Source of the DNA: Hassallia byssoidea VB512170
GTDB taxonomy: Bacteria > Cyanobacteriota > Cyanobacteriia > Cyanobacteriales > Nostocaceae
Assembly (NCBI RefSeq): GCF_000817785.2
Contig: NZ_JTCM02000007.1
Location: 77,368 to 141,367 of the forward strand
Length of the DNA: 64,000 bases
Direction: 5' to 3'
Shown: in pieces, positions 32,850 through 36,936 of the stretch
How the letters are laid out: each line of letters begins with the position of its first letter
Numbering within the stretch: the stretch's first letter is position 1
Position numbers and translations under genes: made by a program
Notes under the pieces: generated by a model
What the model was told of the DNA's origin: nothing
The model's database searches: none
What the model saw: only the letters and a program-made list of their open reading frames with translations

Positions 32850-33116
32850 ATGGCTACCCTTTATGTAAGAAATTTACCCGATGATTTGTATGCAAAGCTG
32901 CAAGAGTTAGCTGCATCTCAGCACCGTTCAATAAATGCTCAAGTTATCACTTTGTTAGAACAAGTCTTGACAACTCAAGCACAAGAAACAGAAGAACAAA
33001 AGCGACAAAATGTCCCAAAAGTTTTAGAGGAAATTCGTCAACGTCGTGAAAATCGTCGGACTGATATCGAATGGCTCGATAGCACTGCTATGATCCGAGA
33101 AGACCGCGATAGATGA
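32850..33116 (+). CDS. FitA/VapB-like antitoxin
   Basis: 88 residues. Ribbon-helix-helix start MATLYVRNLPDDLYAKLQEL and AASQHRSINAQVITLLEQ, the FitA-type DNA-binding domain; charged tail RRENRRTDIEWLDSTAMIRE binds the PIN toxin. Shine-Dalgarno TTGGAGG. Overlaps the toxin start by 4 nt. Confidence 0.9.
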   Translation: MATLYVRNLPDDLYAKLQELAASQHRSINAQVITLLEQVLTTQAQETEEQKRQNVPKVLEEIRQRRENRRTDIEWLDSTAMIREDRDR

Positions 33117-33565
33117 CTACTCCTTTTAGGTGTGTCGTGGATGCTAATGTAGGCATTAAGCAATTCATCCCCGACCCGCTAACCCCTAAAGTTAATCAAC
33201 TGTTTGCTCACCTGAGCAATCCACAAACACAAATCTTTGTCCCAGACCTATTTTACATTGAGTGTGGCAACATCCTTTGGAAGTATGTGCGTGCTGGACT
33301 TTATGCTGTTGCTGATGTCCCAGCAGATTTAGCTAGTCTCAAAGCTTTTCCCTTGCGTGTCGTCTCCACTGCTGATTTAATGGCAGATGCTGTAAGTATT
33401 GCTTTGGCTCATGGGATTTCGGCTTATGATGCTTCTTATGTTGCGCTTTCACAACAAGTTAATGCTACTTTGCTGACTCTTGATCAAAAGCTTGTTAAGG
33501 CTTTAGCTACTACTTCTTACGATGTTGTCTCGTTTAATGATTTTGAGGTTCCGCTCTTGTCCTGA
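33113..33565 (+). CDS. VapC-like PIN-domain ribonuclease toxin
   Basis: 150 residues. PIN-domain acidic residues are all present: D10 (CVVDANV), E50 (FYIECGN), D106 (SAYDASYV) and D124 (LLTLDQKL). VapC toxins cleave tRNA or rRNA. Start ATGA overlaps the antitoxin stop, so this is a complete VapBC-type module. Confidence 0.92.
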   Translation: MTTPFRCVVDANVGIKQFIPDPLTPKVNQLFAHLSNPQTQIFVPDLFYIECGNILWKYVRAGLYAVADVPADLASLKAFPLRVVSTADLMADAVSIALAHGISAYDASYVALSQQVNATLLTLDQKLVKALATTSYDVVSFNDFEVPLLS

Positions 33566-34045: not shown

Positions 34046-34258
34046 TTACTCCTCGATTACTTCAACCAAATCCTCAATCATCACATCAAACAAACGGGCT
34101 AATTTCTGGATTGCCGTAAAGTCAACGCTTCCCATCCCAGGCGATCGTGCATAGGCTCTTACGGTACTATACACTAATCCGGAACGGTCAGACACTTCTT
34201 TCAACGTCCAACCCTTTTCATCAGCAAATTCTCTAATTTTTAACCTAACAAGCCCCAT
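34046..34258 (-). CDS. XRE-family HTH regulator, copy 1 of 3
   Basis: 70 residues from the ATG at 34258; a longer frame to 34360 is rejected since the paralogues begin at MG(L/M/V)(V/I)RL. The HTH reads LKEVSDRSGLVYSTVRAYAR, followed by VDFTAIQKLARLFDVMIEDL. Two more copies lie at 34599 and 35032, each 70 residues. Upstream at 34306-34320 is an element shared by all three. Confidence 0.88.
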   Translation of the reverse strand: MGLVRLKIREFADEKGWTLKEVSDRSGLVYSTVRAYARSPGMGSVDFTAIQKLARLFDVMIEDLVEVIEE

Positions 34259-34305
34259 TTTGCGCTTGACAAGTGATACTTTATTGTCGTTTAATAATTG
34301 TAAGC

Positions 34306-34320
34306 TATAAAACGATCGCC
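34306..34320. promoter_or_regulatory. Conserved element TATAAAACGATCGCC, copy 1
   Basis: Identical 15-mer found upstream of all three XRE genes at 48, 47 and 47 nt from their start codons. It contains CGATCG and an AT-rich half, so it could be an operator or part of the promoter of the minus-strand gene. Confidence 0.6.
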
Positions 34321-34412
34321 TTAAGTCGTAGAAAACAAGAAAGGCGATCGCATTATTCATATTCCGTAAACGGGATGGAATTTTCGTCCAAATCCGCTCA
34401 CAGGTCTATTTT

Positions 34413-34590
34413 ATGTTATCATCACTCAAGCCAAAAACGCTCGTCATCCGCGAATGAAAAATTGTTCACAAATCGTCCATTCGCCACTTCATCAAAGCGA
34501 TTTGTCACAGAATCGGCGTTGAAATCATGTTTAATATCAATCAGTGAAGATATTTATCTAGTGGAATGAGAAGCGATATATAAATTACGA
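34413..34590 (+). pseudogene. Decayed copy of the divergent ORF at 35434
   Basis: ATG 34413 opens MLSSLKPKTLVIRE and then a TGA where the intact copy has TCA (Ser). Downstream the DNA still matches 35434 onward up to about 34585 (GAAGATATTTAT and GTGGAATG are shared), with indels, and then ends at the next XRE gene. The C-terminal two thirds are missing. Confidence 0.8.
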
Positions 34591-34598
34591 TTAGTTGC

Positions 34599-34811
34599 CT
34601 ACTCCCGTACTACCTCCACTAAGTCCTCAATCATCACATCAAACGTGCGGGCTAACTTCTGGATTGCTGTGAAGTCAACAGTTTCTAATCCAGGCGATCG
34701 CGCATATGTTCTCAGGGTGCTGTAGACCACGCCGGAACGGTCAGATACTTCTTTTATCGTCCAACCCTTCTGTGCAGCAAATTCTCGAACGCGCAGCCTA
34801 ATCATTCCCAT
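34599..34811 (-). CDS. XRE-family HTH regulator, copy 2 of 3
   Basis: 70 residues: MGMIRLRVREFAAQKGWTIK, HTH IKEVSDRSGVVYSTLRTYAR and the end FDVMIEDLVEVVRE. About 80% identical by eye to copies 1 and 3. A small DNA-binding protein, probably autoregulatory and able to cross-regulate its paralogues. The intact reading frame shows that all three copies are under some selection. Confidence 0.88.
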   Translation of the reverse strand: MGMIRLRVREFAAQKGWTIKEVSDRSGVVYSTLRTYARSPGLETVDFTAIQKLARTFDVMIEDLVEVVRE

Positions 34812-34857
34812 AATTTACTTGACAATTGATTTATATGAGTCTTTAATAATTGTAGTC

Positions 34858-34872
34858 TATAAAACGATCGCC
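34858..34872. promoter_or_regulatory. Conserved element TATAAAACGATCGCC, copy 2
   Basis: Same 15-mer as 34306-34320, 47 nt upstream of XRE copy 2. Confidence 0.6.
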
Positions 34873-34966
34873 CCCCGGCGTAGTCAACACTAAAGCGCGA
34901 TCGCGAAAGTTCAAATCCCCTAAACAAGATGGAATTTTCGGACAAATCCGCTCACAGGTTTACTTT

Positions 34967-35031
34967 ATGTTATCATCACTCAAACCAATAGCGATAAAGG
35001 GCGATCGCCATAAAAATTCTTACAAGATAGC
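34967..35031 (+). pseudogene. Short remnant of the divergent ORF
   Basis: ATG 34967 reads MLSSLKPIAI and loses similarity after that, ending at TAG next to XRE copy 3. The 60 bp before the ATG (CAAATCCGCTCACAGGT and neighbours) nearly match those before 34413, confirming that the module was duplicated including its leader. Confidence 0.75.
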
Positions 35032-35244
35032 CTAGTCCTCAACGACTTCAACTAAATCCTCAATCATCACATCAAAGGTGCGAGCTAATTTCTGGATTGC
35101 AGTAAAGTCAACCATTGACATCCCAGGCGAACGGGCATAGGTTCTCAAAGTACTGTACACCACGCCGGAACGATCTGACACTTCCTTAATTGTCCAGCCT
35201 TTCTCAGCAGCAAGTTCTCTAATGCGTAGCCTAATTACTCCCAT
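35032..35244 (-). CDS. XRE-family HTH regulator, copy 3 of 3
   Basis: 70 residues: MGVIRLRIRELAAEKGWTIK, same HTH, ends FDVMIEDLVEVVED. This copy faces the only intact divergent ORF (35434), which begins 190 nt from its start. It may control both itself and that gene. Confidence 0.88.
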   Translation of the reverse strand: MGVIRLRIRELAAEKGWTIKEVSDRSGVVYSTLRTYARSPGMSMVDFTAIQKLARTFDVMIEDLVEVVED

Positions 35245-35290
35245 TCCCTATTGACGATTGACTATCTTTAGTCGTTTAATTATACTATAG

Positions 35291-35305
35291 TATAAAACGA
35301 TCGCC
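35291..35305. promoter_or_regulatory. Conserved element TATAAAACGATCGCC, copy 3
   Basis: Same 15-mer, 47 nt upstream of XRE copy 3, within the divergent spacer to the intact ORF. Confidence 0.6.
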
Positions 35306-35433
35306 TTTTGGCGTAGGAAACTGAAAGGCGATCGCTAGTTCAGAAAAACCATATTTCGTCAAACGAGAATCCCTTAAATCAAGAGGTATTTCATTAATCA
35401 AGAGGTATCTCATTAAAACGTGAGGTTTACTTT

Positions 35434-35928
35434 ATGTTATCATCACTCAAGCCAAAAGCGATAGTCATCCGTGAATCAAAAATAGTACACAAATCGTCGA
35501 TTCGCCACAACAGCTCGCGATTTGTCACAGAAGAAGCAGTGACAATCATGTTTAACATTAACTTTGAAGATATTTATGTAGTGGAATGCTGGCGATATAT
35601 AGTTTACGTCCACGCCAAGGGAGTGAGTAAATTTGTCAGCTACGCTGATTTTCCGCCAATAATAGGAGTAGAGCCACCCACCACAGCCGACTTCATCAAA
35701 TGGCGCAAGCGTTGGAAAAAGCAAAATGAACAAGGAAGAAGAAGCAAAGCGCCTGAGTTGTGGGTGAAATTTTTTCTAAACGAATTTTGGCGATCGCCCT
35801 CAGAAGCTGTGTTGTACACTTGGGGCAAATTGGTCGCGTTAATTAAATTTGCGTTTCATGAAGAAAGATTGCAGGAACTGCGAGACAGCTATCGCCAACA
35901 GAGTAAGTGGTTAGTCGTTAGTAGTTAG
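35434..35928 (+). CDS. Hypothetical protein divergent from XRE regulator
   Basis: 164 residues. N-terminal 35 residues are basic (MLSSLKPKAIVIRESK). The centre has YVVECWRYIVYVHAKGVSKF and the C-terminal part is helical and basic-aromatic (ELWVKFFLNEFWRSPSEAVL then YTWGKLVALIKFAFHEERLQ). No family recognised. GAGG Shine-Dalgarno. The last few residues (KWLVVSS) come from an STRR tract into which the gene end has run, so the native end may have been different. Two decayed copies lie at 34413 and 34967. Confidence 0.7.
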   Translation: MLSSLKPKAIVIRESKIVHKSSIRHNSSRFVTEEAVTIMFNINFEDIYVVECWRYIVYVHAKGVSKFVSYADFPPIIGVEPPTTADFIKWRKRWKKQNEQGRRSKAPELWVKFFLNEFWRSPSEAVLYTWGKLVALIKFAFHEERLQELRDSYRQQSKWLVVSS

Positions 35929-36030
35929 TCGTTAGTGGTTAGTCGTTAGTAGTTAGTCGTTAGTGGAAAAACAACCATCAACCAACAACCAACAACCATC
36001 AACCAACAACTATCAACCAACAACTATCAA
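35908..36030. repeat. STRR block (GTTAGTC / CAACCAA)
   Basis: Tandem GTTAGTCGTTAGTAG units pass into CAACCAACAACCATC units. It overlaps the last codons of the 35434 gene and abuts the end of the S1 gene. Confidence 0.9.
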
Positions 36031-36936
36031 CTAGCTTTCTTCAGCTTTGTTCGACGCACGCGCTGCACGCGCTTCGGCTGAAGCCATTACCTCGTCCATA
36101 TTCTCCAGAATTTCGCCTGGGAAGTTTTCCAAAACTCTGGTAGAAAGAGCAACGCGACCTTTACCTTCATCCAAGTCAATAATTACAGCTTTAACGTCCT
36201 GACCGACTTGAAAGACTTTTTCTAGATTGTCAATAAATTTTTGGCTTACCTGCTTAATGTGGAGTAAGGCACTAATACCTGACAAATCAACAAACACGCC
36301 AAAAGGCTTGATACCAGTAACTTTACCTTCGACCAACTGACCATTAGTCAACATACTGAAGCCGGCAGAACGAGTCGCCAAGCGCTGAGAAAGTATGAGC
36401 TTATTATTACTGCGATCAATTTCTAAAAAGCCAGTAGTTAAAGTTTGACCTTTAAGAGCTTCTAAATTATCACGCTCAACCAAGTGCGATCGCGGAATAA
36501 ATCCCCGCAAACCTAGCAAATCAACGGTGACACCACCTTTATTCACGCCCATTACCCGCACTTGTACCGTCTGGCTATTTTCCTGCATTTGCACCAGCCG
36601 TTCCCAGATGTGCTTAATTTCCAGTTGTTTCCGAGACAGGGTAACTTGACCTTCTGCATCCTGTTCTCGGATAATTATAAATTCCAGTTCTTCTTGTAGC
36701 GGCAACACCTCCGACAAATTGGTTACTGCTCTCAAAGAAGCCTCATCGCGGGGGATAAAAGCTGACGATTTGCCGCCAATATCGACATATGCTCCATCAT
36801 GGTCAAGCTGGAACACTTTACCGTGTACCACCTGTCCCTTTTGAAACTGATAGTCGTGTTTTTCCAGTGCTTTGGCAAAATCGTCCATTGTGAATGACGA
36901 GTTGGCTTTTTGAGAAAGTTTCGCTTCGGAATTCAT
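36031..36936 (-). CDS. rps1: S1-domain ribosomal protein (small cyanobacterial S1)
   Basis: 301 residues from ATG 36936; 64 codons of upstream frame lack S1 character and overlap the next gene. Three S1 OB-fold domains: about 32-103 (GQVVHGKVFQLDHDGAYVDI), 122-188 (VQVRVMGVNKGGVTVDLLG) and 198-268 (GQLVEGKVTGIKPFGVFVDL). The length fits the shorter S1-type protein of cyanobacteria. It binds mRNA during initiation. Acidic-helical tail with alanine-arginine repeats. Confidence 0.92.
   Translation of the reverse strand: MNSEAKLSQKANSSFTMDDFAKALEKHDYQFQKGQVVHGKVFQLDHDGAYVDIGGKSSAFIPRDEASLRAVTNLSEVLPLQEELEFIIIREQDAEGQVTLSRKQLEIKHIWERLVQMQENSQTVQVRVMGVNKGGVTVDLLGLRGFIPRSHLVERDNLEALKGQTLTTGFLEIDRSNNKLILSQRLATRSAGFSMLTNGQLVEGKVTGIKPFGVFVDLSGISALLHIKQVSQKFIDNLEKVFQVGQDVKAVIIDLDEGKGRVALSTRVLENFPGEILENMDEVMASAEARAARASNKAEES

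What the first reader, a model, noticed from the sequence alone, without database searches (positions are those of the whole stretch)
34046..35928. Triplicated XRE-regulator / divergent-ORF module, decayed in two copies
Three 70-aa XRE proteins each have the same 15-mer TATAAAACGATCGCC 47-48 bp upstream and, beyond it, the start of a divergent ORF beginning MLSSLKP. The ORF is intact only next to copy 3; copy 1 has a stop and indels, copy 2 keeps about ten codons. The regulators stayed intact while the partners decayed, as if the regulators are retained as antidotes or repressors.
Basis: seen in the sequence. Interest (0 to 1): 0.75.

Follow-up and report, generated by a model that had tools for sequence, protein, structure and literature searches.

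The report
Cyanobacterial repressor with divergent orphan effector
In filamentous cyanobacteria a tiny DNA-binding repressor sits head-to-head with an unexplained basic protein, and the repressor's recognition helix and the DNA palindrome in the partner's promoter have changed together, so the pair looks like a regulated unit rather than a poison and its antidote.

Summary
In detail: three tandem 70-aa XRE genes (X) each face the start of the same divergent ORF (T), intact only beside copy 3. Pair and orientation are conserved: 52 of 55 examined T loci have a divergent X. T is an orphan basic family, found so far only within the window's order. The 15-mer is probably not X's binding site. It is the 5' arm of a stem-loop (H1) with compensatory changes in T's predicted mRNA leader. 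The likely operator is a palindrome nearer X, in the spacer of a TTGACA-TTTAAT promoter facing T; its sequence co-varies with X's recognition helix (partial Mantel 0.50, 0/2000). 'Antidote' is not supported: among loci with one intact partner 12 keep X and 8 keep T, and seven genomes carry intact T with no X found. X alone stays under strong purifying selection (ω 0.02-0.09). Best reading: an autoregulated repressor-effector unit. Promoter, leader and first codons resemble those of an unrelated cargo (P75) beside other X genes. T's activity, expression and binding are untested.

The parts
34046..34258 (-). X1: 70-aa XRE (HTH_26) regulator, copy 1; recognition helix SGLVYSTVRAYARSPG
34266..34295 (+). 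Promoter-like TTGACA-N18-TTTAAT facing the T1 remnant; operator-like TGATACTTTATTGTCG at 34274-34289 inside the spacer
   Evidence: only 4 of 8 pairs complementary: weak palindrome
34307..34355 (+). H1 stem-loop, copy 1 (the 15-mer 34306-34320 is its 5' arm)
   Evidence: (48.4 bits)
34413..34590 (+). T1 remnant: matches residues 1-44, TGA at codon 15, then indels
34599..34811 (-). X2: 70-aa XRE regulator, copy 2; recognition helix SGVVYSTLRTYARSPG
34819..34847 (+). Promoter-like TTGACA-N17-TTTAAT facing the T2 remnant; operator-like TGATTTATATGAGTCT at 34827-34842
34859..34908 (+). H1 stem-loop, copy 2, decaying (36.9 bits; not formed in the predicted minimum-energy fold)
34967..34997 (+). T2 remnant, about ten codons
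35032..35244 (-). X3: 70-aa XRE regulator, copy 3, partner of the intact T; recognition helix SGVVYSTLRTYARSPG
35251..35280 (+). Predicted T promoter TTGACG-N18-TTTAAT; operator-like TGACTATCTTTAGTCG at 35259-35274. An overlapping TTGACT-N17-TATACT at 35258-35286 is also possible
35292..35339 (+). H1 stem-loop in the predicted T leader (15-mer 35291-35305 is the 5' arm)
   Evidence: 56.2 bits; leader z -3.5
35434..35928 (+). T: intact 164-aa basic orphan protein (calculated pI 9.8)

Best explanation
An autoregulated chromosomal repressor-effector unit. X, a minimal Cro/C1-type regulator, probably acting as a dimer, binds a palindromic operator lying between the -35 and -10 of the divergent sigma70-type promoter of T and close beside X's own start codon. 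It thereby shuts off T and, by position, probably limits its own transcription. When X is lifted T is transcribed; its about 150-nt leader begins with a conserved stem-loop (H1) and in some loci has a second hairpin near the start codon, suggesting further control of translation or stability. T itself is most likely a nucleic-acid-binding or repressor-interacting effector, not a poison that X must neutralise. In the window X2 and X3 (same recognition helix) probably both repress the surviving T, while X1 probably recognises its own operator. Shown by sequence: pairing, promoter and operator geometry, helix-operator co-variation, H1 covariation, selection, both directions of loss. Inferred: binding, repression, autoregulation, leader function, T's activity.
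For: 52 of 55 T loci have an X on the opposite strand upstream (includes 3 own-genome loci and some species held in both collections; X is partial in L003 and L036). In 113 X upstream regions TTGACA is exact in 95 and the best spacer 17-18 in 101; at least 6 of 8 palindrome pairs in 68 of 113 against 10% in shuffles and 5.7% in other upstream windows; centre within one base of the same place in 94 of 113. In the 86 of 113 with a clear palindrome and a 60-80 aa X, operator similarity follows recognition-helix similarity (partial r 0.54; rest of protein given helix -0.04); on 67 unique combinations partial Mantel 0.50, 0/2000; strongest protein positions 35, 39, 31, 34, 29, 33; Arg34 with A at operator base 3 in 37 of 37 in both half-sites, Lys34 with another base in 22 of 27 (left) and 18 of 27 (right). 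Six of six locus-B X-only copies keep a palindrome of 5-7 of 8 pairs; eight inspected T-only loci lack H1, and in the six with a readable promoter the palindrome is at chance level. H1: 7 of 10 pairs with changes on both sides, 19 cells against 8.3 in shuffles, 0/500. In 24 genomes all 21 listed model hits above 43 bits (20 sites, one also on its other strand) lie at X genes (most of these sites or close relatives trained the model).
Against: No expression or binding data. The window's own X1 and X3 are not in the helix-operator set: both scored 4 of 8 (X3 with the alternative promoter frame). The generic promoter scan of this region finds 2 sites against 4.5 expected by chance, and not the TTTAAT form, which its rules exclude. 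Weaker associations also occur outside the helix (residues 11, 7, 50, 47). RNAalifold found no consensus pair; the number of further pair types in H1 does not exceed shuffles (178/500), and the covariation score slid by +3 is nearly as high (0.110 against 0.119). H1 arms are HIP1-like, and the model also hits hairpins without X below 43 bits, where a few true X sites fall too. In 12 loci X is kept without an intact local T, so X may have other targets; a strict promoter-operator pattern found only copies 1 and 3 in this genome, against 1 for the reversed control. Related sequences are not independent events.
Confidence: 0.8

Rival explanations
1. A type II-like toxin-antitoxin pair: T is a growth inhibitor and X its antidote and repressor; orphan X genes remain as protection.
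For: Xre proteins are antitoxins in several known systems (PMC2701414, passages). T is patchy, sometimes multi-copy and often broken; X stays intact in 12 loci where T is broken or gone (13 if G697:C318 is counted).
Against: Seven genomes have intact T and no X found by query X3 at E<=1e-8, nor a convincing one by profile around T (one match of E 0.1 in L145), with T under purifying selection (ω 0.12-0.25, four pairs). T and X are divergent, not an operon. T matches no toxin or defence family and is absent from the plasmid and phage collections. Losses go both ways, 12 against 8 (binomial p 0.50, not corrected for kinship).
Confidence: 0.12
2. Remnant of a prophage or other mobile immunity region (Cro/C1 repressor with a divergent early gene).
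For: X matches phage repressor families weakly; divergent Cro/C1-like geometry.
Against: No T in 50,697 phage records or 72,556 plasmids; no close relative in the viral contigs (a scan that finds close relatives only); recurrent chromosomal neighbours (ribosomal S1 paralogue and dienelactone hydrolase at locus A; DNA methylase and GDSL hydrolase at locus B) across many genera. Phage genes further out were not looked for.
Confidence: 0.06
3. H1 is a DNA element, for example part of X's leftward promoter or a pair of HIP1 sites, and not an RNA structure.
For: HIP1-like arms; X's own promoter must lie in or near this region; many low-scoring matches lie away from X; mixed covariation controls.
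Against: Compensatory changes in 7 of 10 pairs; a conserved asymmetric loop; H1 is weak or absent in 4 of 6 locus-B X-only copies (28.1 and 16.6 bits, two without a match there; the other two 45.9 and 35.0) although X is under strong selection.
Confidence: 0.25

Closest known systems
Xre-associated type II toxin-antitoxin families listed by Makarova et al. 2009 (PMC2701414; passages read)
   Same: Small Xre/Cro HTH protein in a recurrent two-gene pair; multiple copies; patchy distribution.
   Different: Divergent instead of operonic; T matches no family in the libraries searched; intact T occurs without a detectable X.
Xre-COG2856 (ImmR/ImmA) and Xre-Bro regulatory pairs (PMC2701414)
   Same: An Xre repressor paired with a protein that may act on it or on its regulon.
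   Different: No protease or antirepressor family match for T; mechanism unknown.
SinR / DdrO / phage Cro-C1-type repressors
   Same: Weak sequence similarity of X to solved chains: an XRE regulator (6jq1), SinR and DdrO (E 0.002-0.007); HTH family.
   Different: X is little more than the HTH domain (70 aa) and lies head-to-head with T.
RNA families of Rfam 15
   Same: H1 would be a stem-loop in a 5' leader.
   Different: No Rfam family matches H1 in the 11 loci and the window searched (matches at or near it are sub-threshold eukaryotic families).

Membership tests
Cro/C1-type (XRE) HTH regulator | Match to a curated HTH model above its cut-off | tested here: met
   PF13443 HTH_26: 34.9, 32.8, 32.1 bits, cut-off 22
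Cro/C1-type (XRE) HTH regulator | Binds a palindromic operator through helix 3 | tested here: inconclusive
   Palindrome and helix-3 co-variation; binding itself not measured
Type II toxin-antitoxin system | Partner belongs to a known toxin family | tested here: not met
   No Pfam, NCBIfam or PADLOC match for T
Type II toxin-antitoxin system | Toxin not maintained intact without its antitoxin | tested here: not met
   Seven genomes with intact T and no X at E<=1e-8; a distant or unrelated antitoxin elsewhere is not excluded
Type II toxin-antitoxin system | Expression of T alone inhibits growth; X relieves it | not testable with these tools
   -
Prophage or mobile immunity region | Present in phage or plasmid records | tested here: not met
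Prophage or mobile immunity region | Phage or integrase genes nearby | not tested
   Only the immediate neighbours were examined
Known Rfam RNA family (for H1) | Match to a covariance model | tested here: not met
Known structural fold (for T) | Clear match to a solved or viral structure | tested here: inconclusive
   AF2 pLDDT 86.6; no Foldseek match E<=0.001 in PDB or BFVD; best VIA Z 5.3, rmsd 2.3, 67 residues

The most novel reading that the evidence does not exclude
A cyanobacterial regulatory cassette with exchangeable cargo. The X gene, the operator-bearing promoter, the H1 leader and the first about eight codons form one transferable control unit, joined to at least two unrelated proteins (T and the P75 family). 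Tandem copies escape cross-talk because X's recognition helix and the operator diverge together. A distant T-like protein also stands divergent from a second, longer HTH-like protein, so regulators and cargo have been reshuffled more than once.
Probability: 0.45. Interest if true: 0.75.

Novelty: new variant of a known kind. Interest (0 to 1): 0.6.

Why it matters
It gives an orphan protein family a control circuit that can be tested directly, and offers a natural set of dozens of repressor-operator pairs in which specificity can be read from sequence. Reciprocal loss at one chromosomal site (X kept in some genera, T in others) helps to separate regulation from addiction, which usually cannot be told apart from sequence. 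The shared leader and first codons over unrelated cargo hint at how small regulatory cassettes acquire new effectors.

Tried and rejected
Rejected: the 15-mer as operator; a phage or plasmid origin; an Rfam family for H1; homology of T with P75 beyond the first residues (16 columns, probability 0.3%); further close operator copies in this genome (only copies 1 and 3). Led nowhere: fold searches with T; PDB by sequence for T (none); RNAalifold on the unedited alignment and the sequence-only model R1 (unused); the promoter scan. Literature: one listing hit for XRE family + divergently + palindrom + cyanobacteria, a Paracoccus plasmid paper by title; none for HIP1 stem-loop + Nostoc or five of six recognition-helix terms; listings only; passages of one paper. 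I saw no report of this pair in those searches; that is not proof of absence.

Errors noticed: the S1 query was translated out of frame; one search repeated it in frame (75 of 145 loci searched hold S1; many of the rest are other loci or short stretches). In one search the promoter of window copy 3 was assigned to the overlapping TTGACT/TATACT alternative. In one search G697:C318 was scored as both broken; its second X has an in-frame stop near its start but passes the frame check, which would make 13 against 8. The states were entered by hand; one search recomputed T frames and the X frames at covered places. G350's T passes the length rule but is counted as broken because its frame shifts near residue 128. 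For the six locus-B X-only loci T was entered as broken although in L168 and L170 no T remnant was recognised.

Rows dropped: nine tandem X copies without their own promoter region, of 122 upstream regions. For H1: of 122 regions 91 passed the hairpin filter, 63 were non-redundant and 52 were aligned; 11 were left out as mis-picked, missing or with a divergent loop, among them two real hairpins (L026, L044 distal copy), so A2 is selected for good hairpins. For the helix-operator test 86 of 113 were used, the window's X1 and X3 not among them.

Full report
Observation. The three X genes, the three exact 15-mers and the three T starts are as described. T is intact only beside X3; T1 has a TGA at codon 15 and indels, T2 keeps about ten codons. 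The X copies are old: dS 0.8-1.2 between them, ω 0.07-0.17. The nearest relative found (Spirirestis, L044) has two X, one T remnant and one T. Its X next to T is identical in protein to window X2, while its distal X is nearest to window X3, which suggests recombination between the tandem copies.

Families. X matches PF13443 HTH_26 above cut-off. T matches nothing convincing in Pfam, PHROGs, NCBIfam, PADLOC or PDB sequences. T occurs in 140 of 388 sampled genomes of the order and, by profile, in 27 of 386 sampled genomes of the phylum, all 27 listed as own genome or same genus, family or order; how many of the 386 lie outside the order is not shown, and mostly nine candidates per genome were scored. 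The order is Cyanobacteriales by the organism names and GTDB usage (name recalled). T is absent from the phage and plasmid collections, and the viral-contig scan, which finds close relatives only, gave none. The AlphaFold2 model (41 rows, mean pLDDT 86.6) has an N-terminal part of short helices and three strands and a C-terminal part of four helices, without a convincing structural match. T is basic (calculated pI 9.8; median 9.5 over 41 rows).

Pairing. Of 55 T loci, 52 have an X upstream on the opposite strand; the exceptions are two Mastigocoleus loci and one T fragment. Tandem X copies recur: three or four X beside one T in other genomes (L076, L080, L081). In 80 genomes of the family, 54 of 77 X places have T or a T remnant in divergent position within 4 kb and 23 do not.

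Two chromosomal sites explain much of this. Locus A lies beside a ribosomal S1 paralogue and a dienelactone hydrolase, as in the window. Locus B lies between a DNA methylase and a GDSL hydrolase. At locus B six genomes keep X with T decayed or gone (remnants readable in some) and six keep T with X gone, while L039 and L043, two close loci from another family, keep both beside the GDSL gene. Over 63 loci scored by hand, 37 have both intact, 12 X only, 8 T only, 6 neither (frames rechecked). Seven of the eight T-only genomes (G691, G386, G270, G701, G353, G380, G679) have no X match at E<=1e-8. Both orphans are constrained: locus-B X-only ω 0.02-0.09 over 15 pairs; T-only ω 0.12-0.25 over four pairs.

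Operator. Reading from X towards T, 113 upstream regions have, 2-19 nt from X's start, a -35-like hexamer (TTGACA exactly in 95) and a -10-like hexamer, most often TTTAAT (46), at a spacing of 17-18 in 101. Inside the spacer lies a palindrome whose sequence differs between X types: TGACTnnnnnnAGTC, GATnnAATTnnATC, GGTGTTATAACACC, GATGCnnnnGCATC and others. Operator likeness follows likeness of residues 26-41 and not of the rest (86 of 113 used). The protein positions with the strongest association, 35, 39, 31, 34, 29 and 33, fall in the recognition helix of this HTH type (placing of the helix recalled from the family, not from a call); weaker ones (11, 7, 50, 47) lie outside it. Arg34 goes with A at base 3 in 37 of 37; Lys34 with another base in 22 of 27 on the left half-site and 18 of 27 on the right. 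Eight inspected T-only loci lack H1 upstream of T; six of them keep a TTGRCA-TTTAAT promoter with a chance-level palindrome, at most 5 of 8. Window X1 shares its helix with L022 and L049, whose operators also begin TGATAC; X2 and X3 share the helix that goes with TGACT-type operators.

Leader. The 15-mer is the 5' arm of H1: consensus AAAAGCGATCGCCCnCCGGnCTnGnAAACTnAAGGGCGATCGC (52 sequences selected from 63). Of ten pairs seven show changes on both sides, 19 cells against 8.3 in shuffles; 86.4% of cells pair, against 23-43% when slid. Against this, further pair types do not exceed shuffles (178/500) and the +3 slide has a similar covariation score; RNAalifold found no pair. The predicted T leader of the window folds with z -3.5; that of copy 1 -2.1; copy 2 -1.5, without H1 in the minimum-energy structure. 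Some leaders show a second hairpin near the start codon that includes a purine-rich stretch (L028, L033, L178). In 24 relatives the 21 listed matches above 43 bits (20 sites) all lie at X genes; lower-scoring ones whose stretches were examined mostly do not, though a few X sites, window copy 2 among them, also score lower. Five of the high-scoring sites were not in the training alignment: G001:C167, G001:C79, G001:C110, G003:C45 and G708:C93.

Exchangeable cargo. Nine X loci of the first survey carry, instead of T, a protein of about 65-77 aa (P75) behind the same kind of promoter and palindrome; a tenth is G001:C167. The H1 facing P75 scores 40-56 bits in seven of the nine and is weak in two (L174 27.8, L187 of this genome 22.2). 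P75 is not related to T, but its first eight residues (for example MISTLKPK against MLSSLKPK) and their codons resemble those of T. P75 relatives occur in 70 of 80 family genomes. The nine X-linked ones are the nine best matches and the only listed rows that align from residue 1; every other listed row starts at residue 4 or later (the query was itself an X-linked P75). A distant T-like protein (residues 31-72 of T alike, hhalign probability 96) stands divergent from a different HTH-like protein of 133-143 aa (PF13443 20.9 bits, just below its cut-off of 22) in four of four loci, all one genus.

Mechanism and limits. The geometry implies repression of T by X and probable autorepression, plus leader control. 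What T does is open; a basic protein whose N-terminal domain recurs opposite HTH regulators is most simply a nucleic-acid-binding or repressor-interacting effector (inference, about 0.35). Nothing here measures binding, transcription or toxicity, and counts are not corrected for shared ancestry.

Noticed in passing
window 32850-33565 (+): FitA-like RHH antitoxin and PIN-domain toxin pair just beside the X array; a PIN relative lies next to X at many locus-A loci in other genera.
   Followed up: partly
window 36031-36936 (-): Paralogue of ribosomal protein S1 (three S1 stretches; below NCBIfam's S1 cut-off), the recurrent neighbour of locus A.
   Followed up: partly
window 35910-36020: Short tandem-like repeats (gttagtcgttagtagttag, then caaccatcaac) into which the end of T runs; several T relatives end in similar LVVS-type residues.
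   Followed up: no
L157, L158, L159, L156/L160: T is interrupted near codon 80-90 in three genomes (gaps of 0.1-1.7 kb); in a fourth the match stops at residue 53, 228 nt before a contig end, and residues 129-161 lie at the start of another contig. Inserts not identified.
   Followed up: no
L187 2386-2621 (-) (own genome, contig C89): HEARO RNA (RF02033, 94 bits) near an X-P75 pair and the end of a ribosomal RNA operon.
   Followed up: no
Locus B, e.g. L165 378-1277 and 2610-3677: X or T lies between an N4/N6 DNA methylase and a GDSL hydrolase in several genera of the family.
   Followed up: partly
P75 family, 80 family genomes: A small-protein family present in 70 of 80 genomes, often in several copies; the one copy tested has no Pfam match.
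   Followed up: no
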